A DNA stretch of 64,000 nucleotides from Alphaproteobacteria bacterium. Lineage in GTDB: Bacteria; Pseudomonadota; Alphaproteobacteria; SMXP01. The stretch is taken from positions 325,322-389,321 of the forward strand of contig JANQPV010000022.1 in NCBI GenBank assembly GCA_028285305.1. Reading direction: 5' to 3'. The translations under genes and the position numbers were made by a program. Numbering within the stretch: position 1 is the stretch's first letter; each line of letters starts with the position of its first letter. The notes below the pieces were generated by a model. The model saw only the letters and a program-made list of their open reading frames with translations, made no database searches and had not been told where the DNA came from. Shown here piece by piece: positions 6,084-23,846 of this stretch.

Positions 6084-6475
6084 AGTTTGAGCCGAAAGAT
6101 CCACCGCGAAAGTTTGAAGTCGGTAATTCCGTTCGCTTTGATATGAGCGACTGTGGGTCAATGAGCTTGGAGCCCGATGAGCAGATTACATTTGTTACGG
6201 AGGCTGGCGGCGAATTCGACGTCGCTCGGAAAGATTGGGGGTTTTATGCGACCCCTTCGCTTAACGGGCGGCTCTCTCAGTTTGATTTGCGTGCGGTGCT
6301 TATTCGGAACTCGCTAACGAACAGATATTACCTGCTGCTTGTTGAAAGAGGCAGAGAGCAGGCGTTCCTTAACTATCTGGAGCAAGAAAGCTGCGAGGTG
6401 GTCACCTGGCTTGACAGCTCTGAATCGTGTGATGCTTTGCGCGCTAGCCTAGACAATGGGTGCGCGCGTGATTAG
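6080..6475 (+). CDS. hypothetical protein, 131 aa
   Basis: I do not recognise this protein. It is small, mixed in composition, without signal peptide, membrane segment or cysteine cluster. It has an acidic middle (LEPDEQITFVTEAGGEFDV) and a C-terminal half with alternating strands and helices (RYYLLLVERGREQAFLNYLE). Its ATG overlaps the amidotransferase stop in ATGA, and its 3' end overlaps the next methyltransferase by 20 bases. This tight coupling on both sides supports it as a real gene and suggests that its product acts with the amidotransferase or with the methyltransferase that follows. Confidence 0.7.
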   Translation: MKFEPKDPPRKFEVGNSVRFDMSDCGSMSLEPDEQITFVTEAGGEFDVARKDWGFYATPSLNGRLSQFDLRAVLIRNSLTNRYYLLLVERGREQAFLNYLEQESCEVVTWLDSSESCDALRASLDNGCARD

Positions 6476-7310
6476 TCCAACACTCCAATGCCCTTGTGAT
6501 GGACAGTACATGAACCATGCTTGGTCGTATAATGAGCCGCCCGATGGAGAGACGCTCTTTGACCTCAAGGGACAGCCCTACTTCCGCTCGTACGACCGCT
6601 GCTCGCTCTGTGGACACATGATAGGGAAGCATCTTCTGGACCTCTCGTTGCTTTATGATCGGGACTACGTCGATGCCACTTACGGCGGAGCGGAGGGTAT
6701 GCGCCAGCGGTTTGAAAAGATCATGAGCCTGCCGCCGCACAAATCAGACAATTGGGCGCGCGTTCGCCGGGTTTTGTCGTTTTTTGGTCGTCACCATAAG
6801 ACAGGTTCCAAACGATTGCGTGTACTTGATGTTGGGGCAGGGCTAGGTGTTTTTCCAGCGGCGATGGCAGAAAACGGATGGGAAGCCATTGCTCTTGAAA
6901 CGGACCGAAGAACGATTAGCCATTTGGAAGAAGTCGCGGGTGTCTCTGCCATTGATCATGACCTGCTCAAGTCAAATGTCGATGAGATCGGTTCTTTCGA
7001 CCTCGTCACATTCAACAAGGTGCTTGAGCACGTCGAAGATCCGGTAGGGCTGCTCGCGTCAAGCTTGCCGTTGGTGGGCGAAAACGGATACGTCTATATT
7101 GAGCTTCCTGACGTCGCAGCTGGCGTCGACGGAAAAGAACGCGAAGAATTCTATGTCGAGCACCACCACGTTTTCAGTCCCACGTCTGTCATTATGCTGG
7201 CGTCCCGGGCTAGTTTTGAGATTTTGGAATTGACCCGAATTCGGGAATCCAGCGGTAAGTATACGCTGTTTGGATTTGCGATCTCTACTGATCGCAAAAG
7301 ACCGTACTGA
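6456..7310 (+). CDS. class I SAM methyltransferase with N-terminal four-cysteine site
   Basis: A 284-residue methyltransferase. The N-terminal 55 residues hold CPC and CSLC pairs, a likely zinc site. The SAM-binding domain follows, with LDVGAGLGVF (about residues 127-136), an acidic residue ending the next strand (ALETDR), and the Methyltransf_23-like stretch VLEHVEDP. Zinc-site methyltransferases of this layout are common in sugar-modifying gene clusters, where they act on nucleotide-sugars or glycans. The start at ATG 6456 lies inside the preceding gene; GTG 6468 is an alternative. The specific methyl acceptor cannot be read from the sequence. Confidence 0.82.
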   Translation: MGARVISPTLQCPCDGQYMNHAWSYNEPPDGETLFDLKGQPYFRSYDRCSLCGHMIGKHLLDLSLLYDRDYVDATYGGAEGMRQRFEKIMSLPPHKSDNWARVRRVLSFFGRHHKTGSKRLRVLDVGAGLGVFPAAMAENGWEAIALETDRRTISHLEEVAGVSAIDHDLLKSNVDEIGSFDLVTFNKVLEHVEDPVGLLASSLPLVGENGYVYIELPDVAAGVDGKEREEFYVEHHHVFSPTSVIMLASRASFEILELTRIRESSGKYTLFGFAISTDRKRPY

Positions 7311-7444
7311 GTTCCGGCCTTGGGTCTCTTTGAACAGTGAAGTCTGGTATCGATTACGGATATGAAAGTAGTTTTCCTTTCATTGATCTGTAGGCAGTTC
7401 TTTTCCTGTCTTCAGATGTGAGTTTCGTTAGTTTTCAAGGGACA

Positions 7445-8140
7445 ATGATGAGAGATTACTTGCAGCAAAATGCTTCGTATTGGGAGAAAGGATATACCGC
7501 TCCGAACGTAGAAAGCGTCGTGTTTCGTATTGTTGGAAGAACGCTCAAGAGTGAGCTGAACTTGGGCCACAAAAATGAGCGAGCAGTGGATTTCGGGTGC
7601 GGGCAAGGAGCAACAGCTGCCTACCTGCATTTAGAGGGTTTCCAAGTTCAGGGGGTTGATATCTCCAAGACGGATATTTCGACTGCTCGTATTCGATATC
7701 CTCATATAGCTGATAGATTTCAAGTTTGCGCTCCAAATCCGGCGGATAATGATTACTACGGTTGGGAAAATGAGGTAGCGCTGGTCATGGCCATTCAGTC
7801 GCTGTACTATTTTTCTAAGAGTGATTTCGATCTCATGATCGATAAGCTCTACAAAGCAATGTCTCCAGGTGCGATACTCTTTACGACAATGATGTCCACC
7901 AAGCATGCGTTTTATCAGTATTCTAAAGCGACAAGCGATCCTTGGCTGAGAGAAACGAATTTTGATGGCCCACGCATAAGAATTGAGAAGTATTACAATT
8001 TCTTCGTGGAGGACCGTGAGGATATGTGTAGCCGTTTTTCTATGTTTGAGCCCATTCACTGTGGTGAGTACATGATGCAGTTGCAGGAGGGTGACACCAA
8101 TAATCACCACCTGACGTTTCTTGGGCGAAAACCGGGTTAG
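7445..8140 (+). CDS. class I SAM-dependent methyltransferase
   Basis: A 231-residue methyltransferase with SAM motif I VDFGCGQGAT and the acidic end of strand 2 in GVDISKTD. ATG 7445 (or 7448) is preferred over the more upstream GTG 7418 because an AGGGA ribosome-binding site lies five bases before it and the protein then begins MMRDYLQQNASYWEKGY, a usual opening for this family. The gene is noticeably more AT-rich than those around 40-60 kb. It is flanked by gaps of 134 and 238 bases, unlike the tightly packed genes before it, and may mark the beginning of a separately acquired part of the locus. Confidence 0.8.
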   Translation: MMRDYLQQNASYWEKGYTAPNVESVVFRIVGRTLKSELNLGHKNERAVDFGCGQGATAAYLHLEGFQVQGVDISKTDISTARIRYPHIADRFQVCAPNPADNDYYGWENEVALVMAIQSLYYFSKSDFDLMIDKLYKAMSPGAILFTTMMSTKHAFYQYSKATSDPWLRETNFDGPRIRIEKYYNFFVEDREDMCSRFSMFEPIHCGEYMMQLQEGDTNNHHLTFLGRKPG

Positions 8141-8378: not shown

Positions 8379-10124
8379 TTGAAAATTCTTGTTTTCGCTC
8401 CGCACTCGGATATATGGGTTCATGCCTTTCCAGAAGCTATCGTTTCCGAGGCCTTGGCTAAGCAAGGGCATGAGATCGACTATGTGACTTGCGGGAGGTC
8501 TCTTCCGGGTTCCTGTGTTCCAGTCGCAAGCCGTGTCGGTGAAGCAGTTAGTCAAGATGAGGTCTGTACTTCTTGCGGAAACAGAGACCGGATGATTCGC
8601 AACGCAATGTCCTTCTCTGGCTTCACAATAGAAGAATTACTCAATGCTACTGATGCGGAGGAAGTTGATGGTTTGCTGCACAACAAGTCATCAGATGAAC
8701 TTATAGATATTCACTGTGAAGATGTTCCGGTTGGAAAGTTTGCAGCATACGAGATCTATCTCCGTGAGAAACGTTACAACGTTGACTTTTCGGGTGAATT
8801 GTTGCTTGAGCTTAAGGAAAAAGTACGAGCAACGTTAGCAACGGCAATTGCCGTACGGAACTATGTCGCTAAGTTTGGCATTCCCCATCGTTTGGTCGTA
8901 TACAATGCGATGTATTCGGTCACGCGCACTGCTTGTGCATTGCTCGAACATCGAGGAGTTCCGTACTATTCTCTTCATGCTGGTCCAAATCTTCCGCATC
9001 GATTGCAGAGACTCATGATAAATCGGCACGATGGCTTTGGAACCATACGACATCAGTTAGAGCAATGGCCGAGGTATCAACACGTTGCGCCATCTGCGTC
9101 CCAACTCTCTTTTGTCACAGACCATCTCCTCCATATGATCAAAGGACGCAGTGTGTTCTCGTATTCTTCGGGGCGCACAAAAAAATCCAAGTGCATCCGG
9201 GAAATCTACGAGATCGCGCCGGAAAAGAAAGTGCTGACAGCTTTGTTGAGTAGCAACGATGAACGTAGTGCAGCAGAAACCATTGGAGCCTATGTCCCGC
9301 CTCAGGACCTACTTTTTCCAACGCAATCCGACTGGGTTCGTGCAGTGATAGACTATGTGCGTGGTCAGGAAGACCTGTTCTTGATTGTCCGTGTACATCC
9401 TCGAGAGCTTCCTAATAGGCGGGACAGCATAGAGTCAGAACATGCACGCCAACTTATGAGCGCGTTCGAAGAACTTCCGAAGAATGTAGCAATCAATTGG
9501 CCAAATGAGAATCTCTCGATTTTTGACATGCTGGATCAGAGCGACGTCTTCCTCTCAGCGTGGTCAAGTTTGGGTAAAGATATTCCAATTTTTGGACGGC
9601 CTGTTGTTGTCTATTCGGGCCAACTGCTGAATTACCCGGCCGATCTAAATTTTGTGGGGGAAGGATATAGTGACTATTTCGATGCTATTCGATCCGCAAT
9701 CGATAAGCCTTTTGATTCGTCTCGGATCCGGCTCGCTTATCGCTGGAGTGTATTCGAACAGTTGAGATCAACCGTGGATATCGGGGATAGTTTTTTCCAT
9801 AGGGAGTATCGGTCTCGAAATGTCTTTTCTAGATCTTGGGTTGCCATCCGTAGGCGGATGCAGAAGGAGTTCATAGAGCGTCGAGATATTGCGCGTCGAA
9901 GTTCCGACCTTCAATCTGCACATCTGATTAACGGGATTATCGAGTCCGGGAATAGCTCCATTCTTGAATTGCTGGAACCCGAGGCCGTTGAGCAAGGCAC
10001 GGTTGAGCACGAGGCGATCGATATAAGAAATGAAACAAGACGTCTTGCTGATGCACTTTTTCCAACTCAAGAAGCGAAGCTGAGCAGCCGATTGTATGCA
10101 TCGTTGTGTACTGCATTTGATTGA
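8379..10124 (+). CDS. putative capsule/surface-polysaccharide glycosyltransferase, 581 aa
   Basis: A large protein opening with MKILVFAPHSDIWVHAFPE, a strand-loop-helix typical of the first GT-B domain, so TTG 8379 is the likely start. A cysteine pair (CTSCGNRD, near residue 66) follows. The central part (LFLIVRVHPRE, then DVFLSAWSSLGKDIPIFGRPVVVY) resembles the second domain of capsule-polysaccharide synthesis proteins, where His-Pro-Arg and the serine-rich loop approach the donor nucleotide. A helical tail of about 120 residues is not recognised. I infer a glycosyltransferase acting in the cytoplasm on a surface glycan; donor and acceptor are unknown. Composition is AT-rich. Confidence 0.6.
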   Translation: MKILVFAPHSDIWVHAFPEAIVSEALAKQGHEIDYVTCGRSLPGSCVPVASRVGEAVSQDEVCTSCGNRDRMIRNAMSFSGFTIEELLNATDAEEVDGLLHNKSSDELIDIHCEDVPVGKFAAYEIYLREKRYNVDFSGELLLELKEKVRATLATAIAVRNYVAKFGIPHRLVVYNAMYSVTRTACALLEHRGVPYYSLHAGPNLPHRLQRLMINRHDGFGTIRHQLEQWPRYQHVAPSASQLSFVTDHLLHMIKGRSVFSYSSGRTKKSKCIREIYEIAPEKKVLTALLSSNDERSAAETIGAYVPPQDLLFPTQSDWVRAVIDYVRGQEDLFLIVRVHPRELPNRRDSIESEHARQLMSAFEELPKNVAINWPNENLSIFDMLDQSDVFLSAWSSLGKDIPIFGRPVVVYSGQLLNYPADLNFVGEGYSDYFDAIRSAIDKPFDSSRIRLAYRWSVFEQLRSTVDIGDSFFHREYRSRNVFSRSWVAIRRRMQKEFIERRDIARRSSDLQSAHLINGIIESGNSSILELLEPEAVEQGTVEHEAIDIRNETRRLADALFPTQEAKLSSRLYASLCTAFD

Positions 10125-10203
10125 TGACTATACGAACGTATTGGTTGTTCAAAGTGTCACCGAAGTAAAGGCTTTAAGTTGAGATCAGCCTATATGCTTT
10201 TGG

Positions 10204-11490
10204 TTGCAAACGGATCGATCGGCAGCTTTGGAAGATCAGCTTGAGTCGCTTGTCATGAACACCAACTACTATCCCAAAATCGATTATCCTTCTCATCCCG
10301 CTTTTTGTATGTTGGACGTCGATCCGAGAGACGACAATGGCGTTGTTGAAGACATGATCGTCGAGATCGACCAAGCGGTTTGTCATTTGAACGAATCTCC
10401 TTTTTCCGATCAATCCTCTTTGCGCGAGGCTTTCGATGACGTCTTGGTCTCGAGAATTGATTCTCTTACAGAGTATTTGTCGAGGACAACTGAGAATGAT
10501 AGGGTGCGATCTTGGATTCAACGCGCTGTTCAGAATGTACGCCAAGAGCTCTGGGAAGGGGCAGTTGTGGCAGTCCGACGACGCAAGTCGGCCTCACTTG
10601 GTCTGACTGAGGAGGCGCTAGAGGTTGCTTCAAAACTCAAAAAGGATGGATGTGCAATATTCAGACTGGAAGAAGAGACCAAACGCACGCTCCGACGACT
10701 ATGCGATCCAGCCATTGCAGAACTGAGAGAGAGAGCAAAGCAAGAGCCAATTGACCGCCTCGTGCACAACTACGAGCTCAGTGGCAAAGTTGGACAAGAG
10801 ATCGCGTCGTTTTTCCGGCGCAAGAGTATTTGTGAGGGACTCTCCGGCTATGTTGGTAGCAATGTGGAGTTCGCCGGATTTTCGTTGGAGTACTCCTATC
10901 CCAAACAAAGCTGGTGGCGCGGTTTGTACTTAGACGTTGGACTAGACGATACGAGAACGTCCTACATGCACTACGATCACGGTTGTCGAGATCCAAAGGC
11001 AATAATTACCCTTTCGGAAGTTGAGAAGGAAAGTGGTCCCACCAGATTTGTTGTTGGTAGCCATGCGCAAGATCGGTCCCGCTTTCTGCACTTCATGATC
11101 AAATCTTTGGATTTTGCATGGGAGCGTGATCCAGAGGTTCTTGGGCCCGGAACGTATTATCGGCCACACTTTTCGCGTCCCGAATACCGTAGAGAGATAT
11201 TGCAGCTTCCTGCGGCCTTTCAAGGTTCGAGTCATTTCGGTGAAGATGTTCTAGACGACACGCCACTGTCCCACGAGTTGCTTAGTCATGAAATTGCGAT
11301 GACTAGCGAGGTGGGCGATTGCATTGTTTTTGATGGAAATAACGGCATTCACCGGGGCGCTCTCGTGGAGCGAGGCGAGCGAATAGCTTTTCAAATCGTG
11401 TTTTTGGTTGAGGACCGTCCTTCCTTTGCGCAGACGATGTACCAAAAAACTCGTGGAATGGCGCTGCGGATGCTTGGCAAGGTTGAATAG
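10204..11490 (+). CDS. phytanoyl-CoA dioxygenase-like Fe(II)/2-oxoglutarate oxygenase
   Basis: A 428-residue protein. The C-terminal two thirds shows the double-stranded beta-helix oxygenase signature: the iron ligands H-x-D in MHYDHGCRD (His256, Asp258), a distal His in GIHRGALVERGERIAFQ (near residue 383) and an Arg about ten residues later for 2-oxoglutarate. ESGPTRFVVGSH between them is typical of the phytanoyl-CoA dioxygenase (PhyH) group. The N-terminal 150 residues are unrecognised. In a glycan locus such an enzyme may hydroxylate a sugar, lipid or amino-acid substituent. The first available start is TTG 10204; ATG 10255 is an alternative. Confidence 0.72.
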   Translation: MQTDRSAALEDQLESLVMNTNYYPKIDYPSHPAFCMLDVDPRDDNGVVEDMIVEIDQAVCHLNESPFSDQSSLREAFDDVLVSRIDSLTEYLSRTTENDRVRSWIQRAVQNVRQELWEGAVVAVRRRKSASLGLTEEALEVASKLKKDGCAIFRLEEETKRTLRRLCDPAIAELRERAKQEPIDRLVHNYELSGKVGQEIASFFRRKSICEGLSGYVGSNVEFAGFSLEYSYPKQSWWRGLYLDVGLDDTRTSYMHYDHGCRDPKAIITLSEVEKESGPTRFVVGSHAQDRSRFLHFMIKSLDFAWERDPEVLGPGTYYRPHFSRPEYRREILQLPAAFQGSSHFGEDVLDDTPLSHELLSHEIAMTSEVGDCIVFDGNNGIHRGALVERGERIAFQIVFLVEDRPSFAQTMYQKTRGMALRMLGKVE

Positions 11491-11532
11491 CCTTCGGTTA
11501 ACCTCTGGACAAATTCGAGTTAGGGAAACGAA

Positions 11533-12609
11533 TTGTTAGGTTTCAGAAACCCTTGGCGTACTGAACAGACGAAGGTGATCCAGGTGAGTGAGAGTTTGCT
11601 TGGGTCGCAAAAGTTGGTCGGTGTTGATGTAGGGGCGGCAAATGGCCTGCTCCCGCATTGGCGTTCCTTAGATGGTATCGCCACGATTTATCAGGTTGAA
11701 CCAAGAAAAGAGTCTTGCGATGATTTGCGGGCGCAATTGCAGAACTCTGTTCGGCCTGATCTATATCAAGTGATTGAAGCCGGTGTTGCCGGTACTGAAG
11801 GAGAGCGCACACTCTACGTATCAAACGTTCCCACTGGGTCTTCGCTCTATTCACCAAACCCTGATGCCCGTGACAATGATGGACAGTATACAGATCCATC
11901 GTATTTTTGGCCAATCACCGAACGAAAGATCAGCACCAGGCGTTTGGAAGGGATTTTCGATGAGGTTTCAGAGCGTCAAGTCGATCTTATTAAGCTCGAT
12001 ATTCAAGGTGCCGAACTCGAGGCGTTAGAAGGGCTAGGAGAAACGCGACTCTCGAATCTTTTGTGTGCTGAATTAGAGATCGGCTTGCACGACATATATA
12101 AAGAAGCGGCAAGTTTCTGCGATGTGCAGGATTTCTTTCAGCAGTACCAGATGCAGTTTTTCGACGTTCGTGTTTCCCGCGCCCGGTTGCCACGAAATGG
12201 GTCGTCTGGCACCTATGAACAGAGCGTCTTTTCGGTACAGGACAATAGTCCTACGCTCTCGGCGCGGGTATGGGAATTTGATGCTGTGTTCTTTCGGTCA
12301 AGAACCGACGTGTTAGGGAAGCGCGATCCCAATTTGATCCGGCGGATGATGTTAATCTATGCTACATACAACTTTTTCGCTGAGGCGCATCGCTTGGCGG
12401 AAGATGCTGAGAAGGCAGGCATTCTTTCTGGTGATGTCTGTGCTGAGCTTCAGAAGCTGATTGTAGATTTGCACTACGTAAAGCACTTTCGCCCCTGGTT
12501 GTCGCGGCATCGATTCTGGGGCCTGGTACAGCGCATCAGATACCGTTTAGCACCTCGGAATGTACAGCGTTGGTGTCAGTATATGTATCAAGAATATCCG
12601 CACGGGTGA
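11533..12609 (+). CDS. FkbM family methyltransferase
   Basis: A 358-residue protein with an FkbM-type methyltransferase core: SAM motif VGVDVGAANG (about residues 33-42) and the family's LIKLDIQGAELEALEG near residues 152-167. FkbM enzymes O-methylate sugars or polyketides. TTG 11533 is chosen as the start because AGGGA lies seven bases upstream and there is no better start before the SAM motif. About 120 residues after the core (from ATYNFFAEAHRLAEDAEKAG onward) form an added helical region of unknown role. It is the first of three FkbM-type genes within 5.6 kb. Confidence 0.83.
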   Translation: MLGFRNPWRTEQTKVIQVSESLLGSQKLVGVDVGAANGLLPHWRSLDGIATIYQVEPRKESCDDLRAQLQNSVRPDLYQVIEAGVAGTEGERTLYVSNVPTGSSLYSPNPDARDNDGQYTDPSYFWPITERKISTRRLEGIFDEVSERQVDLIKLDIQGAELEALEGLGETRLSNLLCAELEIGLHDIYKEAASFCDVQDFFQQYQMQFFDVRVSRARLPRNGSSGTYEQSVFSVQDNSPTLSARVWEFDAVFFRSRTDVLGKRDPNLIRRMMLIYATYNFFAEAHRLAEDAEKAGILSGDVCAELQKLIVDLHYVKHFRPWLSRHRFWGLVQRIRYRLAPRNVQRWCQYMYQEYPHG

Positions 12610-12649: not shown

Positions 12650-14413
12650 GTGAATCAAAGATTATCATATCTCCGATCACTGATCGGTTTTGCTTTTCAG
12701 AATAACCCGCTTCTATACGGCGCGCTCGCGCTGTCAGTCTTTTCTGTGATCATCGAATTGGCGGCCGTCAGTAGTCTGATGCCACTTGCAGCCGTAGCGG
12801 CAGGCGAAAGCGCGCCGGTCGACTCGCCTACCGTCAGAGTGCTTGACTGGATGGGTATGACGGCGAGCGGGCAAACATTGTTGATCGTCTTCGTTGGTCT
12901 TTTCTCAGTCCGTGTGCTCACTCAATTTGCCAGTCAGGGCTTGATCTTTTATTTGAGCAAAAGACTGCTTTTGCAGCTATCGACACGTGCATTTCATACA
13001 ATTATGCACAGTGTTCCGCTCAAAGAGCTGGAAAGACAGAGTATGGGCTATTTTATCACATTGTCGGGTGATGAGGCAAATCGCGCCAGCAATATCATTG
13101 CTTATATGAGTCAGTTCGCATCCGTAACCTTGCTCGCTTTTCTCTATTTTGTTGCAATCGTCGCATTTTCCCTGCCTGTTGCCGTCTTTGTGGCCGTCTT
13201 CCTTTTAGTTTCTTTTCTCGCGCTCTTTAATTCCTTCCGTACCACACATAAGCTTGGCGCTAAGGCCGTTGAACAGTCGCAGGGACTTCACTCCGTCTTT
13301 GTAGACACTCTGAACGGGCTTCGGTCTGTTCGAGCCTTTGCAGCAGAAACTTATGTATCCAACAATTATTACAGCATGCTCCTGTCCTATGTGCGGACCA
13401 ATGTCATAATAGAGATGATTTCCCTGACAGCGCGCTACGGCCCCGCTTTGCTTCTTTTGCTCGCTGTTTGCGGAGTTGCCTTGTGGCCCTCTTCTGCTAG
13501 TCGTTTTTCAGTCGAATTGCCCCTTCTCGTCACACTGATCGTACTATTGATGAGGTTTTTTCCGGTGACCGGTCAGGCTCTTAATCTTGGTCTGCGGATT
13601 ATCGCGGACGTGCGAGCTGGCCAAGACGTGACGCATATAATCAATCAGTATAAGCCGGCCTCTCCTAAGCAGGAGATGGACGTATTGGAGACAATCACCC
13701 GGATTGAAGCACGTTCGATCGACTTCTCGCATTTAGACGGGAAGCCGGTTTTGACTGGTTTCGACGTTTCATTGGAGAAAGGGAAGAGCTACGCTCTTGT
13801 TGGAGAGTCGGGGTCGGGAAAGTCCACATTCTTAGACCTGTTATTGTGCTTTTATGAGCCTGAGAATGGTAAGTTGCTTGTCAATTCCACCGCGCTTCAA
13901 TCTGTCCCCAAATTAGAACTCAGGCGGAGAATCGCGCTTGTCGCTCAAGAGCCCGTGATCTTTAACGATACGGTAGCTAGCAATATACAGTTTGGTGCCC
14001 AAGCCGACCGCGAGCAAATTGAACGTGCCTGCAAAGTTGCCTGCATTCACGAATTTATTCTTTCCTTACCAGAGGGGTACGACACCCACATAAACTATCG
14101 CGGAAGCAATCTTTCCGGCGGTCAAAAACAACGGATAGGAATTGCGCGCGCGGTTTTGCGGCAACCTGATGTGCTTTTGCTGGATGAAAGTACAAGCGCA
14201 CTGGATGAGGGAACGCGGAAGCGGGTTGTTTCCAATCTTCTCACAGAGTTTCAAGACCGCATCATACTGTTTGTTACCCACGATGCGTTCGTTATGGGAG
14301 AAGCTGATTTCATTTACGCGATGGACAAGGTTAACCAAGTCTGTGCTGACACAAAAGACGAGACAGTTAAACAGAAACACCGCGATTCCGTCCGCACTTC
14401 GACAAGCTCGTAG
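12650..14413 (+). CDS. ABC transporter, fused permease and ATPase (PglK/MsbA type)
   Basis: A 587-residue half-transporter. The N-terminal 330 residues hold about six membrane segments. The ATPase domain has Walker A GESGSGKST (about 384-392), the Q-loop in LVAQEPVIF, signature LSGGQKQR (near 488), Walker B VLLLDEST (near 507) and the H-loop FVTHD. The architecture matches lipid-linked oligosaccharide flippases such as PglK and lipid exporters such as MsbA. It is the only exporter in the glycan locus, so it is the best candidate to flip the lipid-linked glycan across the inner membrane. The start is GTG 12650. Confidence 0.85.
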   Translation: MNQRLSYLRSLIGFAFQNNPLLYGALALSVFSVIIELAAVSSLMPLAAVAAGESAPVDSPTVRVLDWMGMTASGQTLLIVFVGLFSVRVLTQFASQGLIFYLSKRLLLQLSTRAFHTIMHSVPLKELERQSMGYFITLSGDEANRASNIIAYMSQFASVTLLAFLYFVAIVAFSLPVAVFVAVFLLVSFLALFNSFRTTHKLGAKAVEQSQGLHSVFVDTLNGLRSVRAFAAETYVSNNYYSMLLSYVRTNVIIEMISLTARYGPALLLLLAVCGVALWPSSASRFSVELPLLVTLIVLLMRFFPVTGQALNLGLRIIADVRAGQDVTHIINQYKPASPKQEMDVLETITRIEARSIDFSHLDGKPVLTGFDVSLEKGKSYALVGESGSGKSTFLDLLLCFYEPENGKLLVNSTALQSVPKLELRRRIALVAQEPVIFNDTVASNIQFGAQADREQIERACKVACIHEFILSLPEGYDTHINYRGSNLSGGQKQRIGIARAVLRQPDVLLLDESTSALDEGTRKRVVSNLLTEFQDRIILFVTHDAFVMGEADFIYAMDKVNQVCADTKDETVKQKHRDSVRTSTSS

Positions 14414-17149: not shown

Positions 17150-17851
17150 ATGAGAGAACGTTTGAGCAATTTAGCCACAGCTATCTGTCCGCCGATTTTG
17201 CTTCCTCCTGTGAAAGCAATATACAGAGTAATTAGTGGTCGTGCGCAAGTGATTATTGATCCGCACTCGCAGGACCTTGATGTCTATTGGACAGATGAAA
17301 TGCAGCAAGTCCTTGAGACTTGGGGGGAAGGAAATGTTTGGAGCGAGATCCAACTCGCGATGGCCGGTCGAAAAGGAAAAGCGTTAGATATAGCGTGCGG
17401 CACGGGAAAGGTGACTTCGCTTCTTCAATATAACAAGGACTTGGAGATCTGGGGCGTAGATATTTCGGACAAGTTCATCGACAAGGCTGCCCAGCGTGGT
17501 CTTGATCAGAGCCGATTGTTTATCGGCGATGCTTTGGATCTACCTTTTGAAGACAACTTCTTTGACTACTCATACTCGATTGGTTCGATTGAACATTTTA
17601 CTGAGGATGGCATTGCTACTTTTCTCAAAGAGAGTGATCGAGTGACCAATTCGACTTCTTTTCACATGCACCCGGTTTCGAAGTCCGGAGAAAATGAAGG
17701 CTGGATCAAGACTGTCCAAAGTTATTTCAATAATTCTGTAGATTGGTGGCTTCCGAAGTATCGTGAGGCTTTCTCTTCGGTTGTCGTACTAGACTCTCTG
17801 TGGGAAGATCACCGGTCGAAGGGTAAATGGTTTGTTTGCAGTAACCTTTAG
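17150..17851 (+). CDS. class I SAM-dependent methyltransferase
   Basis: A 233-residue methyltransferase with motif I LDIACGTGKVTSLL (about residues 79-92), GVDISDKFIDKA for the adenosine-binding strand, and DLPFEDNFFDYSYSIGSIEHF, which matches the motif II/III region of Methyltransf_11 proteins. It probably methylates a sugar or glycan intermediate. The stop is three bases from the GTG start of the next methyltransferase, so the two are likely translated as a pair. Nothing in the sequence fixes the acceptor. Confidence 0.78.
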   Translation: MRERLSNLATAICPPILLPPVKAIYRVISGRAQVIIDPHSQDLDVYWTDEMQQVLETWGEGNVWSEIQLAMAGRKGKALDIACGTGKVTSLLQYNKDLEIWGVDISDKFIDKAAQRGLDQSRLFIGDALDLPFEDNFFDYSYSIGSIEHFTEDGIATFLKESDRVTNSTSFHMHPVSKSGENEGWIKTVQSYFNNSVDWWLPKYREAFSSVVVLDSLWEDHRSKGKWFVCSNL

Positions 17852-17854
17852 TCT

Positions 17855-18688
17855 GTGATACCTCACTTCTTGAAAAGCTGGATTCCACCTGCCGCGTATG
17901 CGAGTGTCGAAAGGCTGCGAAGAGGACGATCCGGGCTTGGGAATCTCATTGGCAGTTGGCAACAGGCGCGCGAAGATGGGTCTAGTTATGCTGCAGATGA
18001 GATTTTGCACTCAGTCGACCAAGCGGTGCAGCGAGCGATGGCTAGCGGAGTCCAAGATAGAGACGGATCCCTTGTCAGCAACTCGGCTGCTCCAGGCGCG
18101 CTTATTGCGACTTTGCTTCAACAAGCCCTCAAAACTAATTCTAGAGGACGGCTTTCCGTACTCGATTTTGGCGGTGCTCTTGGCTCTTCCTATCGACTAG
18201 CCAAGCCTTGGATGGAGCCCTTGGATAGTCTGACCTGGCATATTGTTGAGCAGCCGGGGTTTGTTGAAACGGGCCGAAGGAGTTATGAATCAGATGAGCT
18301 GCGCTTTTTCGCCTCAATGGAGGAAGCGGCAACAGCGTCTACACCGGACATCATCCTATTTTCGGGCGTGCTCCAGTACCTCGACAACCCCTATGAAATT
18401 CTGGAAAGAGCCAAAAAACTTGGTGCAGAAACGGTTTTTGTGGATCGCAATCCAAAAAGTGAAGTGATCGAGGACAAGTATACTCTACAATATGTTCCAG
18501 GAGGGACATTCACAGCGCGCTTGCCTTTTCGCATATTTGGAAAACAAAAGCTGGAGGAAGCTTTGTCTCCGGAGTACATTCTGCGGGGAAATTTTGCTAG
18601 CGTTGATCCAGATATGACTGCGGGCGGAATGCCCGTTTCGTTTCTGGGTTCGTTGTTTACCGCAAGCGACGGCCCGCAGCAGCCGTAG
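17855..18688 (+). CDS. TIGR04325-type methyltransferase
   Basis: A 277-residue protein resembling the TIGR04325 methyltransferase family of surface-polysaccharide loci. It has SVLDFGGALGSSY (about residues 105-117, replacing the usual G-x-G-x-G), WHIVEQPGFVETG, then DIILFSGVLQYLDNPYEIL and ETVFVDRNP. The SSY after the glycine loop and the VEQ-x-x-x-V-E stretch are family hallmarks. The start is GTG 17855, three bases after the previous stop. The enzyme probably modifies a glycan intermediate; its reaction has not been inferred more closely. Confidence 0.8.
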   Translation: MIPHFLKSWIPPAAYASVERLRRGRSGLGNLIGSWQQAREDGSSYAADEILHSVDQAVQRAMASGVQDRDGSLVSNSAAPGALIATLLQQALKTNSRGRLSVLDFGGALGSSYRLAKPWMEPLDSLTWHIVEQPGFVETGRRSYESDELRFFASMEEAATASTPDIILFSGVLQYLDNPYEILERAKKLGAETVFVDRNPKSEVIEDKYTLQYVPGGTFTARLPFRIFGKQKLEEALSPEYILRGNFASVDPDMTAGGMPVSFLGSLFTASDGPQQP

Positions 18689-18728
18689 AACAAATAGGCT
18701 ATCGCATTCAGGATAAGAATTGGAAAGC

Positions 18729-19139
18729 ATGGCATACGAAGTAATTGAAGAAGATGGCGTGCGTTACGCCGAAATCATTTGGGCCAACACGGAAGTTGAA
18801 ATCACCAAGTTTTATTCGCCTGCGGAATCGTCGCTGCAATTCGGATTGCTAGCACATGAAGCGGGTTTCGTGGAGCCGCCGCACTATCATCACCCTGTTA
18901 AGCGTGAAATCAACGACCTTCAACAGATGTTGGTCGTTCAACGCGGTGTCGTTGCAATTGACTTCTTTCGTCCGGATGGGTCAAGACTGCGTGAGGTGGT
19001 GCTAAAGGTTGGTGACGCGATCAATTTGATTGACGGCGTTCATTCCGTGCGCGTCATAGAGGACATGCAGTGCGTTTCCGTCAAGCAGGGCCCGTTCTTG
19101 GGGGATAAATTGGACAAAGTTAATGTCGACACAAAATAG
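18729..19139 (+). CDS. cupin-like protein
   Basis: A 136-residue single-domain cupin. The first cupin motif carries histidines in PPHYHHPVK (near residues 54-62) followed by MLVVQRGVVAIDFF, and the second motif has GDAINLIDGVHSV. It is too unlike FdtA-type sugar 3,4-ketoisomerases in sequence to be called one, although its size is similar. ATG 18729 is preferred; TTG 18720 in frame is possible. Its 3' end overlaps the aminotransferase gene by 17 bases. A role in preparing or epimerising the nucleotide sugar used by that enzyme is a reasonable inference, not something shown. Confidence 0.65.
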   Translation: MAYEVIEEDGVRYAEIIWANTEVEITKFYSPAESSLQFGLLAHEAGFVEPPHYHHPVKREINDLQQMLVVQRGVVAIDFFRPDGSRLREVVLKVGDAINLIDGVHSVRVIEDMQCVSVKQGPFLGDKLDKVNVDTK

Positions 19140-20247
19140 AATTCCCGTTCACGAGCCAGAAATCGGTGAAGAAGAGATCGAAGCGGTTGTTGCGGCTCTT
19201 CGGCGTGGAGAGATCTCCGGTACTTTCGGGCAGGCTCTTCCGGAGTTTGAAGAAAAGTTCGCGGCCTATTGCGGCTGCAAACACGGGATTGCGGTCACAA
19301 ACGGAACTACCGCTCTTCAGATGGCAGTCACCGCAGCCGGTGTCGGTGCGGGCGATGAGGTCCTGATGAGTGCGTCCACGAATATCGCGACTGCGCTGGC
19401 CGCTTACTACAACAACGCGGTACCGGTGCCGGTTGACTCGGAACCTGTAACCTGGAATTTGGATCCCAGCTTGATCGAAGAATTGATCACACCTCGAACA
19501 AAAGCGATCATCCCGGTTCATTTGTTTGGCCATCCCTGCGCTATGGATCAAATCATGGAGATTGCCACCAAATATGGTCTCGCAGTGATAGAGGATTGCG
19601 CTGAATCCCATGGTGCAACGCTGAATGATCAGATGACGGGTAGTTTTGGCGGCATGGGATGTTTTAGCTTTTACGCCAACAAAGTGATTACGACTGGCGA
19701 GGGCGGAATGGTTACGACCAATGACGACCGTTTGGCTGAGAAGCTCAGGTCCTTGCGCAATCTCTGTTTTGGTCAACCGCGATTTGTTCATCAGGAAGCG
19801 GGCTATAACTTCAGAATGACAGGCTATCAAGCGGCGATGGGATTAGCTCAGCTCGGGAAAATTGAGCAGATCATTGAGCAAAAACGGCGTATTGCGCAAA
19901 CATACAATACTTATCTGAACGACGTTCCTGGTGTCCAAACGCCGGCTGAACTGCCCGGTGTTCGGAATGTTTATTGGATGTATGCGGTTTCCATTGAACC
20001 GGAGTTTGGGAGAAGCCGTGATGAATTGGCGGACATTTTGCGGGAGCAGGGTATCGACACCCGAACATTCTTCTGTCCCATGGGGCAACAGCCCTTCCTT
20101 CAGGAGCAAGCTGGGTATCGTGATATCCCTTGCCCAGTAGCGGATCATCTTTGGGAAAGCGGCTTTTATCTGCCATCGGCCAATTCCTTGGACGAAGGGT
20201 CGATTAGACGCATTTGCGATGCCATCCGCGATGCGGGGCGTTTTTAG
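19123..20247 (+). CDS. DegT/DnrJ/EryC1/StrS aminotransferase, perosamine-synthase-like
   Basis: A 374-residue PLP-dependent sugar aminotransferase. Lys187 in SFYANKVITTGEGGM is the expected Schiff-base residue; TNGTTALQMAV and VIEDCAESHGA hold the phosphate-binding and ring-stacking positions. The sequence around the lysine and PVHEPEIGEEE at the start resemble GDP-perosamine synthases, which put an amino group at C4 of a 4-keto-6-deoxy sugar. This suggests an amino-dideoxy sugar in the glycan. The 4,6-dehydratase needed to make its substrate is not in the window. Confidence 0.85.
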   Translation: MSTQNRIPVHEPEIGEEEIEAVVAALRRGEISGTFGQALPEFEEKFAAYCGCKHGIAVTNGTTALQMAVTAAGVGAGDEVLMSASTNIATALAAYYNNAVPVPVDSEPVTWNLDPSLIEELITPRTKAIIPVHLFGHPCAMDQIMEIATKYGLAVIEDCAESHGATLNDQMTGSFGGMGCFSFYANKVITTGEGGMVTTNDDRLAEKLRSLRNLCFGQPRFVHQEAGYNFRMTGYQAAMGLAQLGKIEQIIEQKRRIAQTYNTYLNDVPGVQTPAELPGVRNVYWMYAVSIEPEFGRSRDELADILREQGIDTRTFFCPMGQQPFLQEQAGYRDIPCPVADHLWESGFYLPSANSLDEGSIRRICDAIRDAGRF

Positions 20248-20265: not shown

Positions 20266-21486
20266 GTGAAGATTGCCGCATATGTAGCCGGGTATGCGCC
20301 TGACGCCGGAGGAGGATATACGTTTGAGAACGATGTCCTGAACGGCTTGTTGGCGCGCCTGAGGTCCGGTGATCCCCATGACTTTTGTATAATGTGCCCG
20401 GCCAGCAGCGAGCCCTCTCTGCGTGCGCATATCGCGCCGTTTGAGATAGAGGTTCTTCCTATCCCGGAGGGGCGCTTGCGGAGCATGGGAACGGCCTTAC
20501 TCCGTGACAGCGATTTCTTGCGCTCGCATTGGCGGCGGCCTTATGCGCTGGATCGCGTCGCAGATAAGGGGCGGGTGGATTTCATTTGGTTCCTTGGAGC
20601 TGGAGTTCACCTGACAAATCGTCCGTATGCTACAATCGTTTGGGATATCCAGCATCTGAACACGCCGTGGTTCCCTGAAATGAGCGGAAATGGACTTTGG
20701 GATGGCCGCGAAATGTCACACAATTGGTTTTTGCGCCGCGCCTCTGTCGTGGTGACGGGCACAAGACGCGGCCAACACGAACTGAATAGTCTCTATCACA
20801 TCCCAATTGAACGGTTACCAATCTTGCCGCACCCCACGCCTCAATTTGCCTTGGATGCCGGCGTGCCCGAAAAGAGCCGTTCCATCGTTGACGGCTTGGG
20901 TTTGACTAGGCCTTATGTTCTGTATCCCGCTCAATTTTGGCCTCACAAAAACCATGTCAATTTAATCGAGTCGCTTGCCCGTTTGAAGCGGGACAAGGGT
21001 GTCGCTATGGATTTGGCGCTTGTCGGTTCCGACAAAGGCAATCGCGGTTTTTTGGAGGCGGTGGCAGACCGTCTAGGTGTGAGGGATGCGATTCACTTCT
21101 TGGGGTTCGTTGACCGAAGCGATCTTATTGCTCTTTACCAGGAAGCTGTGGCGCTTACCTATGCTTCATGGTGTGGGCCGGAGAACTTGCCTCCACTGGA
21201 AGCGTTTGCGTTGGGATGTCCTGTGGTGGCAACGGACATTCCGGGAGCCCAGGAACAACTCGGCGATGCTGCTATACTGGTCGATCCGGCGAATCCGAGC
21301 GCGATTGCGGATGGAATTCTCAAGGTTCATCAGGATCCAAGGCTGCGCGAGGGCCTAATTGAAAAAGGCCATGTTCGCGCGCGAAAATGGACGCCTACGG
21401 AGTATGTGAACGGATTCCTCGATCATGTGGAAAAATTCGAGCCGATCCTAAAATGTTGGAATGCATCACCTCAGAGAGAGGGATGA
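20266..21486 (+). CDS. GT4-type (GT-B) glycosyltransferase
   Basis: A 406-residue retaining glycosyltransferase. The C-terminal domain has PAQFWPHKNHVNLIESLARL and the donor-site motif GPENLPPLEAFALGCPVVATDIPGAQ with the E-x7-E pattern of family 4. It would transfer a sugar from a nucleotide donor to the growing lipid-linked glycan on the cytoplasmic face. The start is GTG 20266, giving the normal beginning MKIAAYVAGYAPDAGGGYTF. Its stop overlaps the next GT2 gene start in ATGA. Confidence 0.85.
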   Translation: MKIAAYVAGYAPDAGGGYTFENDVLNGLLARLRSGDPHDFCIMCPASSEPSLRAHIAPFEIEVLPIPEGRLRSMGTALLRDSDFLRSHWRRPYALDRVADKGRVDFIWFLGAGVHLTNRPYATIVWDIQHLNTPWFPEMSGNGLWDGREMSHNWFLRRASVVVTGTRRGQHELNSLYHIPIERLPILPHPTPQFALDAGVPEKSRSIVDGLGLTRPYVLYPAQFWPHKNHVNLIESLARLKRDKGVAMDLALVGSDKGNRGFLEAVADRLGVRDAIHFLGFVDRSDLIALYQEAVALTYASWCGPENLPPLEAFALGCPVVATDIPGAQEQLGDAAILVDPANPSAIADGILKVHQDPRLREGLIEKGHVRARKWTPTEYVNGFLDHVEKFEPILKCWNASPQREG

Positions 21487-22346
21487 AAACACACGAACAG
21501 AATTCGCTGTCGATATCCGTCGTCACGCCCAATTACAATATGGGTGACTATCTGAGCGACACCATTGTGTCCGTTCTTGGCAATCTTAAGAGTTGCGATG
21601 AGTACTTTGTCATTGATGGGGGTTCGAGCGACAATAGCAGGGAGGTGATCAAGAGGTTCGACGGCCAATTGACCGATTGGGTCAGTGAACCGGACCGGGG
21701 CTATGCGGATGCGATCGCGAAAGGCTTTGCGGCGGCGAGCGGAGACATACTGTGCTGGGTTAATAGTGGTGATTTGCTGCTGTCGGGAGCGCTCGACAAC
21801 GTCCGATCCGCATTTGCATCGCATGACGCGGAGCTGTTGTTTGGGGATGATTTCTATATTGACGAAGAAAGCCGCGTGATCCGCTATAGTCGGGGCTTCG
21901 CGCCTGATCTGAAGCGTGCGATGTTATTGGGATCATGGACCCCGCTACAGGATGCTTGTTATTGGAGGCGATCTGCATACGAGCAAGTTGGTGGTATTGA
22001 TCCGACGATCAGCTCAGCCGCCGATTATGACCTCTTCTTGCGCTTGGCTGTGCGATGTCGTTCGGCCTATATACCGATCGCTTTCAGTGCCTTTCGGCGG
22101 CACCCAGGCCAAAAATCTATTTCCGACACAGGTACCTATGCGTCTGAAAAAGAAAGAATCCGGCGGCGGGAGTTGGCGGCTGCGGGTTGTGGTTCCTCAC
22201 GAGTGCGTTCTGTCTTCCCGCGGCTCATGACGAGCCTGCGCAGCCGTTTCGCGGCGCGTCTTTGGGTCCGACGCGATCTGATTGGCCGACCAATCGGTGA
22301 GTTGCCATCAGGCCGGTATTGGCCACCCTCGATTTCCCTTGAGTAG
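21483..22346 (+). CDS. family 2 glycosyltransferase
   Basis: A 287-residue GT-A glycosyltransferase with SISVVTPNYNMGDYLSDTI, FVIDGGSSDNSREVI, EPDRGYADAIAKGF and the loop CWVNSGD in place of the usual DxD. These features match a GT2 group in which N-x-G-D replaces DAD. ATG 21483 is the start, overlapping the previous stop in ATGA and preceded by a purine-rich GAGAGAGGG; longer in-frame starts run into the GT4 gene and are rejected. About 70 residues after the catalytic core are basic and helical. Confidence 0.84.
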   Translation: MKTHEQNSLSISVVTPNYNMGDYLSDTIVSVLGNLKSCDEYFVIDGGSSDNSREVIKRFDGQLTDWVSEPDRGYADAIAKGFAAASGDILCWVNSGDLLLSGALDNVRSAFASHDAELLFGDDFYIDEESRVIRYSRGFAPDLKRAMLLGSWTPLQDACYWRRSAYEQVGGIDPTISSAADYDLFLRLAVRCRSAYIPIAFSAFRRHPGQKSISDTGTYASEKERIRRRELAAAGCGSSRVRSVFPRLMTSLRSRFAARLWVRRDLIGRPIGELPSGRYWPPSISLE

Positions 22347-22365
22347 GGTGGCGTCCGCCGTAAGC

Positions 22366-23109
22366 ATGCGAAGTCTCGCTAAACGCTGGCTTTTGCCCTT
22401 CCTAGATCCGCGACGCTTGCTGCTCATTTTTCGTGTGCCGCGTTTTTGGGCCGAACTGCGGACTTACAAGTGTCGTTCCTCGTCTGAGCAGGTGTTACTC
22501 GCAGACACGTATCCCTGCCTGACAGATCGGACGTCAACTACACCCTTTGACCCTCACTATTTCTACCAAGGGGCTTGGATTGCCCGAAAGCTCGCTGGCT
22601 CCAACCCTACGCGGCATGTCGATGTTGGCTCCAGCGTTTTGACCATCAGCGTTTTGTCCGGCCATGTGCCCACGATATTTCTTGACTATCGTCCGCTTGC
22701 TGTCGGGTTGCCTGGGTTGGGCAGTATTGCCGCCAGTGTTTCCGGTCTTCCGTTTGCGGATGGCAGTATTTCCTCGCTGTCGTGTCTTCATGTGATTGAG
22801 CATATAGGGCTTGGGCGATACGGTGACCCGATTGACCCGGATGGAACTTTTAGGGCGCTGGATGAATTGCAAAGGGTGACATCTCGCGGGGGGCGTTTGT
22901 ATTTGAGCGTGCCCGTTGGTCGGGAGCGGGTTTGCTTTAACGCGCACCGGGTGCTTTGCCCTGACACGGTCCTGCAGCGGTTAAACGCTATGGAACTCAT
23001 CAGTTTTTCGCTTGTCGATGATGAGGGCCGTTATCATCCCGACTGCGATGTCAGCTGCGCCGGTCAACTGGACTATGGCTGCGGCTTGTTTGAATTGAGC
23101 AAACACTAA
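22366..23109 (+). CDS. DUF268-type putative methyltransferase
   Basis: A 247-residue protein of the DUF268 group. It has RHVDVGSSVLTISVLSG as a modified SAM glycine motif, then FLDYRPL, SGLPFADGSISSLSCLHVIEHIGLGRYGDPIDPDG and GGRLYLSVPVGRERVCFNAHRV. The HVIEHIGLGRYGDP segment is diagnostic for this group, which is related to class I methyltransferases and common in polysaccharide loci. Start is uncertain: GTG 22348, one base after the previous stop, is in frame and adds six residues; I used ATG 22366. Function beyond probable methyl transfer is unknown. Confidence 0.75.
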   Translation: MRSLAKRWLLPFLDPRRLLLIFRVPRFWAELRTYKCRSSSEQVLLADTYPCLTDRTSTTPFDPHYFYQGAWIARKLAGSNPTRHVDVGSSVLTISVLSGHVPTIFLDYRPLAVGLPGLGSIAASVSGLPFADGSISSLSCLHVIEHIGLGRYGDPIDPDGTFRALDELQRVTSRGGRLYLSVPVGRERVCFNAHRVLCPDTVLQRLNAMELISFSLVDDEGRYHPDCDVSCAGQLDYGCGLFELSKH

Positions 23110-23120
23110 CGTCGACCTGC

Positions 23121-23846
23121 ATGTTGGATCGCCTTAAGCACAGTGATCTGTTTGCTTACAACCTCTATCAGCGGGACAAGTGGGTTAGGGCACAAGCAAG
23201 TACAATTGAAAACGATGCGCGGGTTCTCGATGCGGGAGCAGGGTCATCGCCTTACCGTGCAATGTTCAATCATTGCATTTATGAAACACAAGATTTTACT
23301 CAGCTGAAGGATGATCAATTGCGCCATGGTGGATACGGTGCAATTGACTACGTTTGCGACATTGCTGAAATTCCGGTTGAGGACGGTAAGTTCGATGCGA
23401 TTCTTTGCACTGAAGTGCTGGAGCATCATCCGGACCCGGTTCGTGTTGTAAATGAATTCGCGAGAATTTTGGCACCAGGCGGTGTGCTCCTGTTGACGGC
23501 GCCGTTGGGTTCGGGAATTCATCAAGAGCCTTACCATTACTACGGCGGCTTTACGCCTTATTGGTACCAGCGTTTCTTGACTGAGGCCGGATTCGTTGAC
23601 CTTGAAATCGAAGCCAATGCGGGCAGCTTCCGCCAATTCTCTCAAGAAGCGATCCGCTTTGTGCAGATGACTCGCCCGTTTGGCGGGACGCTGCCCTTTG
23701 GACCTTCTCTTGTTTGGGCGCCCTTTTGGATTTTACTATTGCCAGTTCTTGCCGGGCTGGTGCCGATTGCGGCGAAACGGCTCGACGCTTACGACACGGA
23801 ACAGCGGTTTACTGTCGGATATCATGTGCGCGCCGTGCGTCACTGA
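23121..23846 (+). CDS. class I SAM-dependent methyltransferase
   Basis: A 241-residue methyltransferase with VLDAGAGSSPYRAMF (about residues 35-49), then DIAEIPVEDGKFDAILCTEVLEHHPDPVRVVNEFARILAPGG, the strand-4 to helix-E region of Methyltransf_11 proteins. A hydrophobic stretch near the C-terminus (LVWAPFWILLLPVLAGLVPIAA) is probably a membrane anchor or reentrant helix, so the enzyme may sit at the inner membrane near the lipid-linked glycan. It is 11 bases after the DUF268 gene. Confidence 0.8.
   Translation: MLDRLKHSDLFAYNLYQRDKWVRAQASTIENDARVLDAGAGSSPYRAMFNHCIYETQDFTQLKDDQLRHGGYGAIDYVCDIAEIPVEDGKFDAILCTEVLEHHPDPVRVVNEFARILAPGGVLLLTAPLGSGIHQEPYHYYGGFTPYWYQRFLTEAGFVDLEIEANAGSFRQFSQEAIRFVQMTRPFGGTLPFGPSLVWAPFWILLLPVLAGLVPIAAKRLDAYDTEQRFTVGYHVRAVRH

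What the first reader, a model, noticed from the sequence alone, without database searches (positions are those of the whole stretch)
6456..23846. Nine methyltransferase genes in one glycan locus
Six different types are present (Zn-site, two or three Methyltransf_11-like, three FkbM, TIGR04325-like, DUF268-like) within 17.4 kb, against five or six glycosyltransferases in the whole locus. That is an unusual excess of decoration over assembly and predicts a strongly O-methylated, relatively hydrophobic glycan, possibly variable between strains.
Basis: partly seen in the sequence, partly recalled or inferred. Interest (0 to 1): 0.55.

Follow-up and report, generated by a model that had tools for sequence, protein, structure and literature searches.

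The report
Methyltransferase-rich surface sugar gene locus
A stretch of bacterial DNA that builds an unusual surface sugar really does carry nine methyl-adding enzyme genes; some belong to a core shared with distant bacteria while others look swapped in and out, so the nine should not be read as nine extra O-methyl groups on one greasy sugar coat.

Summary
The nine methyltransferase (MT) genes are real: seven pass Pfam or NCBIfam cut-offs on catalytic-type domains, one passes through DUF268, and one (16185-17114) is a divergent FkbM relative found only by profile comparison. Nine in 17.4 kb is the highest of 79 related loci examined (median of the other 78: 2). The locus has seven glycosyltransferases, not five or six.

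MT1 (6456-7310) belongs to a nonulosonic-acid (NulO) amidine module: a WbuX amidotransferase lies just upstream in 60 of 64 testable homologous loci. It more likely modifies the NulO (N-methyl amidine, as reported for PtmH/ORF8) than a hydroxyl. MT3 and MT4 belong to a block (NulO-transferase-like enzyme, dioxygenase, FkbM, ABC flippase, FkbM, glycosyltransferase) shared with Nitrospira and Afipia. The other MTs vary: Afipia birgiae has 12 in 25.6 kb, and syntenic Nitrospira differ by one TylF-type gene (3 with, 3 without). So variation between related loci is supported. "Strongly O-methylated" and "hydrophobic" are not shown: a characterised cluster uses three MTs for two methyl groups, and losing N-methyl made Legionella's surface more hydrophobic. 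This is a methyltransferase-rich variant of a known kind of locus.

The parts
311..1324 (+). NeuB-type nonulosonic acid synthase
   Evidence: PF03102 206 bits; below NCBIfam cut-offs for NnaB and PseI, so the exact NulO is open
1363..2337 (+). Gfo/Idh/MocA oxidoreductase of the NulO module
   Evidence: recurs in 46 of 80 MT1 loci
2414..3091 (+). GNAT N-acyltransferase, WecD-like
   Evidence: recurs in 55 of 80 MT1 loci
2967..4925 (+). AsnS1, glutamine-dependent asparagine-synthase-type amidotransferase (annotated start overlaps GNAT; true start probably later)
   Evidence: PF00733 218 bits; in 67 of 80 MT1 loci
4944..6083 (+). WbuX family N-acetyl sugar amidotransferase
   Evidence: TIGR03573 335 bits, cut-off 203; in 71 of 80 MT1 loci
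6056..6475 (+). orf6056, conserved 139-aa protein of unknown function between WbuX and MT1
   Evidence: no Pfam; in 65 of 80 MT1 loci, directly upstream of MT1 in 53
6456..7310 (+). MT1, Methyltransf_23 with four-cysteine N-terminal site; NulO-module methyltransferase
   Evidence: four Cys in 71 of 81 aligned sequences; D125, G127, G129, E191, H192, H236 in 81 of 81
7418..8140 (+). MT2, Methyltransf_25/11 type, accessory
   Evidence: no match in any of 10 comparison genomes
8379..10124 (+). GTx, predicted GT-B glycosyltransferase, candidate CMP-NulO transferase
   Evidence: model pLDDT 84, pTM 0.86; top rows GT-B including KpsC Kdo transferase; invariant RVHPR stretch and W395, S396, G399, K400
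10204..11490 (+). PhyH-like 2-oxoglutarate/Fe dioxygenase
   Evidence: PF05721 17.5 bits, below cut-off 22; H256, D258, H383, R393 invariant in 7 of 7 rows; profile hits solved Fe/2OG dioxygenases weakly
11533..12609 (+). MT3, FkbM family, core
   Evidence: PF05050 57.6 bits; ortholog 54-55% in Afipia, 35-39% in Nitrospira
12650..14413 (+). ABC exporter with fused membrane and ATPase parts, MsbA/PglK/HepA type
   Evidence: no NCBIfam equivalog cut-off reached
14503..15228 (+). MT4, FkbM family, core
   Evidence: PF05050 67.4 bits; 46-52% in Afipia and Nitrospira
15225..16169 (+). GT2-like glycosyltransferase, core
   Evidence: PF00535 17 bits, below cut-off 23.3; conserved downstream of MT4
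16185..17114 (+). MT5, divergent FkbM-like, accessory
   Evidence: hhalign to FkbM alignment 97.6%; homologs in 15 of 229 other class genomes; single-sequence model unusable, pLDDT 37
17150..17851 (+). MT6, Methyltransf_11/25, accessory
17855..18688 (+). MT7, TIGR04325 methyltransferase family, accessory
   Evidence: 141.4 bits, cut-off 80; in 0 of 229 other class genomes; 34-36% counterpart in 5 Nitrospira loci
18720..19139 (+). small unassigned ORF, cupin-like by eye
   Evidence: no Pfam
19123..20247 (+). DegT/LegC-like sugar aminotransferase
   Evidence: PF01041 400 bits; TIGR04181 311 bits, below cut-off 420
20266..21486 (+). GT4 glycosyltransferase
21387..22346 (+). GT2 glycosyltransferase
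   Evidence: 55% ortholog beside MT8 in Afipia
22282..23109 (+). MT8, DUF268 type, accessory (true start probably near 22366)
   Evidence: PF03269 53 bits; 55-57% in Afipia
23121..23846 (+). MT9, Methyltransf_11, accessory
   Evidence: 32-37% counterpart in 5 Nitrospira loci
23714..25090 (+). glycosyltransferase, Glyco_trans_1_2 (true start probably after 23846)
25097..26035 (+). GT2 glycosyltransferase
26051..28024 (+). AsnS2, second asparagine-synthase-type amidotransferase, near the XrtA/PEP-CTERM type
   Evidence: TIGR03108 604 bits, below cut-off 817; 45% in Afipia
27934..29202 (+). GT4 glycosyltransferase

Best explanation
This is a mosaic surface-glycan locus built around an amidinated nonulosonic acid, with methyltransferases added in modules. 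Shown by sequence: a NulO module (NeuB to orf6056), a core block (GTx, PhyH-like dioxygenase, MT3, ABC exporter, MT4, GT2-like) and a variable tail. Inferred: MT1 methylates the NulO, most likely on the amidine nitrogen that AsnS1 and WbuX install, before GTx transfers the NulO from CMP; MT3 and MT4 (FkbM) O-methylate sugars of a conserved inner oligosaccharide, the dioxygenase hydroxylates one position, and the ABC exporter flips the lipid-linked product; MT2 and MT5 to MT9 make lineage-specific methylations of the outer sugars. The number of different methyl groups is probably fewer than nine.
For: MT1 neighbourhood: of 80 named MT1 loci, WbuX in 71, AsnS1 in 67, orf6056 in 65, NeuB in 50; WbuX just upstream in 60 of 64 loci with more than 2.5 kb upstream; control, MT5-centred glycan loci, WbuX in 1 of 14. 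Separation of modules: two Nitrospira loci (G629, G632) keep GTx-PhyH-MT3-ABC but, in the 34 and 50 kb read, show no WbuX, AsnS1, MT1 or MT4 in that place. Core block: order MT1-GTx-PhyH-MT3-ABC-MT4-GT15225 kept in Afipia birgiae and in six Nitrospira (five read up to GT15225; L122 ends after MT4). Accessory MTs: MT2 in 0 of 10 genomes; MT7 and MT9 counterparts only in Nitrospira, MT8 only in Afipia, MT5 and MT6 in neither; TylF-type MT between GTx and PhyH in G242, G243, G246, not in G244, G245, G640. GTx: GT-B model, best VIA row KpsC beta-Kdo transferase Z 12.2, rmsd 5.2, 265 aligned. Precedents: PtmH/ORF8 N-methylate Leg5Am (PMC3766260, PMC13306086, PMC13317340, passages).
Against: No enzyme or glycan was assayed. 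PtmH or ORF8 sequences were not obtained, so MT1 homology to them is untested, and no PtmH model appeared in the NCBIfam scan. MT1's profile also hits sugar C-methyltransferases TcaB9 and mycarose 3-C-MT, which fits C-methylation as well. WbuX occurs without MT1 in 5 of 6 NeuB-centred genomes. GTx's Z score ties with many other GT-B rows, so its donor is a guess. MT counts in other loci are homology-seeded lower bounds and many loci are truncated.
Confidence: 0.6

Rival explanations
1. One reading: all nine enzymes O-methylate hydroxyls of one glycan, giving a strongly O-methylated hydrophobic polymer.
For: FkbM, TIGR04325, DUF268 and Methyltransf_11 genes lie inside one glycan operon-like run with short gaps; density is the highest of 79 loci.
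Against: MT1 tracks with the amidotransferase module and is absent with it from two loci; MT number need not equal methyl number; N-methyl loss raised hydrophobicity in Legionella.
Confidence: 0.15
2. MT1 is a C-methyltransferase acting on a keto-sugar or NulO precursor, in the manner of TcaB9 or mycarose 3-C-methyltransferase, with a zinc-binding N-terminal part; the rest of the locus works as in the best explanation.
For: Profile A1 hits 4rv9 (E 4.7e-10), 5t64 (1.1e-8) and TcaB9 entries; four-Cys site in 71 of 81; an E/D-H pair at residues 235-236 is kept (E 61, D 19; H 81 of 81), which I recall, from no call, as resembling the active site of those enzymes.
Against: Only the catalytic half aligns; UbiG-type O-methyltransferases score at least as well; the constant partner is an amidotransferase.
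Confidence: 0.25
3. Several of the MTs are redundant, have lost function or work as pairs on one position, so that only two to four methyl positions exist (compatible with the best explanation).
For: In T. forsythia loss of either of two unrelated MTs removes the same methyl group (PMC6120980 section 20); MT5 lacks a recognisable Pfam MT domain.
Against: All nine ORFs are open, eight with family hits, and motif positions are conserved in MT1, MT3 and MT4.
Confidence: 0.3

Closest known systems
Legionaminic-acid amidine N-methylation (PtmG/PtmH of Campylobacter, ORF8 of Legionella pneumophila sg1)
   Same: NeuB-family synthase, amidotransferase and a methyltransferase in one NulO locus (passages in PMC3766260, PMC13306086, PMC13317340)
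   Different: Homology of MT1 to PtmH/ORF8 not tested; here an asparagine-synthase-type protein and orf6056 accompany WbuX, and eight further MTs follow
Tannerella forsythia protein O-glycosylation cluster (27 kb)
   Same: NulO, an AnsB-type amidotransferase put forward for the amidine, glycosyltransferases and MTs in one cluster (PMC6120980, passages and section 20)
   Different: Three MTs and two methyl groups there; nine MTs here; the MTs were not compared by sequence
Nitrospira and Afipia birgiae loci found here (L118, L120, L121, L122, L185, G640; L159)
   Same: Same NulO module and the same core block in the same order
   Different: Different accessory MTs: 5-6 MTs in Nitrospira, 12 in Afipia; MT2, MT5 and MT6 only in the window
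KpsC beta-Kdo transferase (6mgd, 8fuw)
   Same: Predicted GT-B fold of GTx aligns over 265-266 residues at rmsd 4.7-5.2
   Different: 13% identity; Z tied with unrelated GT-B enzymes

Membership tests
FkbM methyltransferase (PF05050) | Domain score above 22.7 bits (MT3, MT4) | tested here: met
   MT3 57.6, MT4 67.4 bits
FkbM methyltransferase (PF05050) | MT5 (16185-17114) reaches the Pfam cut-off | tested here: not met
   No Pfam hit at E<=0.01. It is a relative by profile comparison only (97.6%)
TIGR04325 methyltransferase family | Score above 80 bits | tested here: met
   MT7 141.4 bits
DUF268 (PF03269) | Score above 25 bits | tested here: met
   MT8 53.0 bits over residues 169-227, profile 69-127 of 176: partial domain
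WbuX amidotransferase (TIGR03573) | Score above 203.2 bits | tested here: met
   335.2 bits
PtmH/ORF8-type NulO amidine N-methyltransferase (MT1) | Encoded with a NulO synthase and an amidotransferase | tested here: met
PtmH/ORF8-type NulO amidine N-methyltransferase (MT1) | Sequence homology to PtmH or ORF8 | not tested
   No sequence of either was obtained
PtmH/ORF8-type NulO amidine N-methyltransferase (MT1) | Transfers methyl to the amidine of CMP-NulO | not testable with these tools
   needs an enzyme assay
TcaB9-type sugar C-methyltransferase (MT1) | Profile match over catalytic domain | tested here: inconclusive
   Matches, but UbiG O-methyltransferases match as well
KpsC-like CMP-Kdo/ulosonate transferase (GTx) | GT-B fold close to KpsC | tested here: inconclusive
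   Best Z 12.2 but tied within 1 with other GT-B rows
PhyH dioxygenase (PF05721) | Score above 22 bits | tested here: not met
   17.5 bits
Fe/2-oxoglutarate dioxygenase fold group | HxD...H metal triad and distal Arg | tested here: met
   H256, D258, H383, R393 in 7 of 7 rows

The most novel reading that the evidence does not exclude
A previously undescribed, horizontally spread glycan core (amidine-methylated NulO transferred by the GTx family, then hydroxylated by the PhyH-like enzyme and doubly O-methylated by MT3 and MT4, flipped by the ABC exporter) occurs in unrelated phyla, and the methyltransferases around it act as a combinatorial cassette that changes surface identity by gain and loss of methyl groups rather than of sugars.
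Probability: 0.3. Interest if true: 0.6.

Novelty: new variant of a known kind. Interest (0 to 1): 0.42.

Why it matters
If the modular reading is right, surface diversity in nitrifying Nitrospira, in Afipia and in this bacterium (class Alphaproteobacteria, inferred because contigs of same-class genomes have the lengths of named alphaproteobacterial records) is made by swapping methyl-adding enzymes on a conserved sugar scaffold. That can be tested by comparing six syntenic Nitrospira that differ by a single TylF-type gene in the core block. It also warns against reading the number of methyltransferase genes as a number of O-methyl groups or as hydrophobicity.

Tried and rejected
Rejected: nine recent duplicates (best pair E 1.9e-6). 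Rejected: that the four-Cys site of MT1 is not conserved; the first 8-row alignment suggested so, but it is kept in 71 of 81 (in one search I had counted the wrong columns for the second pair). Phase-variable tracts: a scan for runs of at least 8 A or T, or 7 G or C, in 6456-23846 found none. A genome-contig scan with MT7 alone found no relative. MT7 in 0 and GTx in 2 (weak, 24-25% identity) of 229 other class genomes; GTx in 0 of 397 other genomes of the phylum and in 8 of 29 Nitrospira. MT2 in comparison genomes: nothing, though the tool warns that an empty answer without a positive control shows little. PDB profile search with MT5 gave only two chance-level nuclear-receptor rows and with MT4 none. 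The MT5 single-sequence fold failed (pLDDT 37) and was not searched.

Papers: searches were seen as listings. Six papers were opened: PMC13306086, PMC3766260, PMC13317340, PMC12016536 and PMC11320575 as passages only, PMC6120980 as passages and section 20. PMC12016536 and PMC11320575 did not bear on the locus. None of the listings named this locus type, but the library is open-access only.

Rows dropped or limited: the 80 named MT1 loci are the best 80 of 149 relatives. L063 was dropped from alignment A1 because its stretch holds a stop. Of 79 loci several overlap (for example L159 with the Afipia stretch, L118, L120, L121 and L185 with the Nitrospira stretches). In one search the count was 58 of 64 because two touching or overlapping genes (L175, L182) were missed; one search gives 60 of 64.

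Full report
What is there. The window (C5:325322-389321 of a 5.4-Mb, 77-contig genome) carries from 311 to 29202 one run of same-strand genes with short gaps or overlaps. I number them MT1 to MT9. Eight have curated domain hits above cut-off; MT5 (16185-17114) has none and is tied to the FkbM family only by a profile-profile match of 97.6% to one FkbM alignment, while another gave no match. Two further MT genes lie upstream of the window on the other strand.

Is it more than chance? Against the genome background of 59 MT places, seven in 17.4 kb is far beyond chance, but glycan genes cluster. I therefore counted MT-type ORFs in 79 glycan-type loci with one homology-seeded procedure, checked by eye on the window, Afipia and Nitrospira against the Pfam calls. 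The window's best 17.4-kb span has 9; the other 78 have a median of 2 and a maximum of 8. Several of the 78 overlap each other, many are cut at 16.8-20 kb, and the seeds come partly from the window, so this is a rough ranking. The glycosyltransferase count is seven: 8379-10124 (GTx) has no Pfam family but its model (pLDDT 84, pTM 0.86) matches GT-B enzymes.

The NulO module. Genes 311-6475 encode a NeuB-type synthase, an oxidoreductase, a GNAT, an asparagine-synthase-type protein, a WbuX amidotransferase and a small conserved ORF. Upstream of the window are an epimerase, a DegT aminotransferase, a cytidylyltransferase, a formyltransferase-like and a deacetylase-like gene. NeuB scores below the cut-offs for both sialic and pseudaminic synthases, so the exact acid is open.

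MT1 belongs to that module. A scan of named genomes with an alignment of eight MT1 sequences gave 149 relatives, 80 kept, in Alphaproteobacteria, Rhodocyclales, Nitrospira, Cyanobacteria, Omnitrophota, archaea and others. WbuX is in 71, AsnS1 in 67, orf6056 in 65 and NeuB in 50 of the 80 loci. With more than 2.5 kb upstream available, 60 of 64 have a same-strand WbuX just upstream of MT1; the four exceptions are L129, L166, L170 and L179 (one search gave 58 by missing two touching genes). In 14 glycan loci found through MT5 instead, WbuX appears in one. WbuX also occurs without MT1, in 5 of 6 NeuB-centred genomes, so MT1 is an optional addition. PtmH of Campylobacter and ORF8 of Legionella are reported to N-methylate the amidine of legionaminic acid (passages of PMC3766260, PMC13306086, PMC13317340). 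I infer the same for MT1; its homology to those proteins was not tested. The rival is C-methylation, because the MT1 profile also hits TcaB9 and mycarose C-methyltransferases.

The core block. Afipia birgiae (L159/L192) and Nitrospira loci L118, L120, L121, L122, L185 and G640 keep the order MT1, GTx, PhyH-like, MT3, ABC exporter, MT4, GT15225 (L122 is read only to MT4). MT3 is 54-55% identical in Afipia and 35-39% in Nitrospira. Two further Nitrospira (G629, G632) keep GTx, PhyH-like, MT3 and the exporter, but in the stretches read (34 and 50 kb) show no WbuX, AsnS1 or MT1, and no MT4 after the exporter (other FkbM-type genes follow further on). So MT1 goes with the amidotransferase and MT3 goes with GTx and the exporter: they are separable. 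GTx is rare: none in 397 other genomes of the phylum, two weak ones in 229 others of the class, 8 of 29 Nitrospira. That patchiness points to horizontal spread (inference).

The accessory methyltransferases. MT2 has no match in 10 comparison genomes. MT5 and MT6 have no counterpart in the Afipia or Nitrospira loci; MT7 and MT9 have counterparts of 32-37% in Nitrospira, MT8 one of 55-57% in Afipia beside the same GT2 gene. Afipia has 12 MT-type ORFs in 25.6 kb, one fused to a GT2; six of the 12 were confirmed by Pfam, the others by homology. Among six syntenic Nitrospira a TylF-type MT sits between GTx and PhyH in G242, G243 and G246 and is missing from G244, G245 and G640. Counts around GTx (9 kb before to 22 kb after): window 9 MT and 7 GT, Afipia 12 and 7, Nitrospira 3-6 MT and 3-6 GT, one of them cut short.

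What does not follow. MT number is not methyl number: in T. forsythia three MTs give two methyl groups, and loss of either of two of them removes the same one (PMC6120980 section 20). Hydrophobicity does not follow either: the Legionella mutant without N-methyl had the more hydrophobic surface (PMC13306086 passage). The FkbM, TIGR04325 and DUF268 members here most likely O-methylate sugars, but no acceptor is shown.

Verdict. The locus is a methyltransferase-rich variant of NulO glycan loci, with a core block shared across phyla that I did not find described in the papers searched (open-access library only).

Noticed in passing
L006:8069-10435 (about 8.3 to 5.9 kb before the window start): A 788-aa ORF joins an LPG_synthase_TM (flippase-like) part to a Wzy_C ligase/polymerase part; no counterpart was seen in the Afipia or Nitrospira stretches.
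   Followed up: no
window 6056-6475: orf6056, a 139-aa protein without Pfam match, lies between the amidotransferase and MT1 and is directly upstream of MT1 in 53 of 80 loci; its role is unknown.
   Followed up: partly
window 29271-29774 and 29771-30424, - strand: A NusG/RfaH/UpxY-type antiterminator (RfaH 98 bits, below cut-off 144.5) beside a MarR-like gene, on the strand opposite to the glycan run.
   Followed up: no
window 32487-34571, - strand: TPR protein with a GT41 (O-GlcNAc-transferase-like) part.
   Followed up: no
window 10204-11490: A PhyH-like Fe/2OG dioxygenase kept beside GTx and MT3 in Afipia and Nitrospira, an uncommon enzyme for a glycan locus.
   Followed up: partly
L005:8535-11668: A second sugar-acid set upstream (epimerase, HAD phosphatase, HpcH aldolase, cytidylyltransferase).
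   Followed up: no
G629 and G632 (L212-L216): Nitrospira loci with GTx, PhyH, MT3 and exporter but without the amidotransferase module.
   Followed up: partly
window 6000-20000: G+C of about 0.48-0.51 against 0.52-0.54 on either side, in keeping with a mosaic origin.
   Followed up: no
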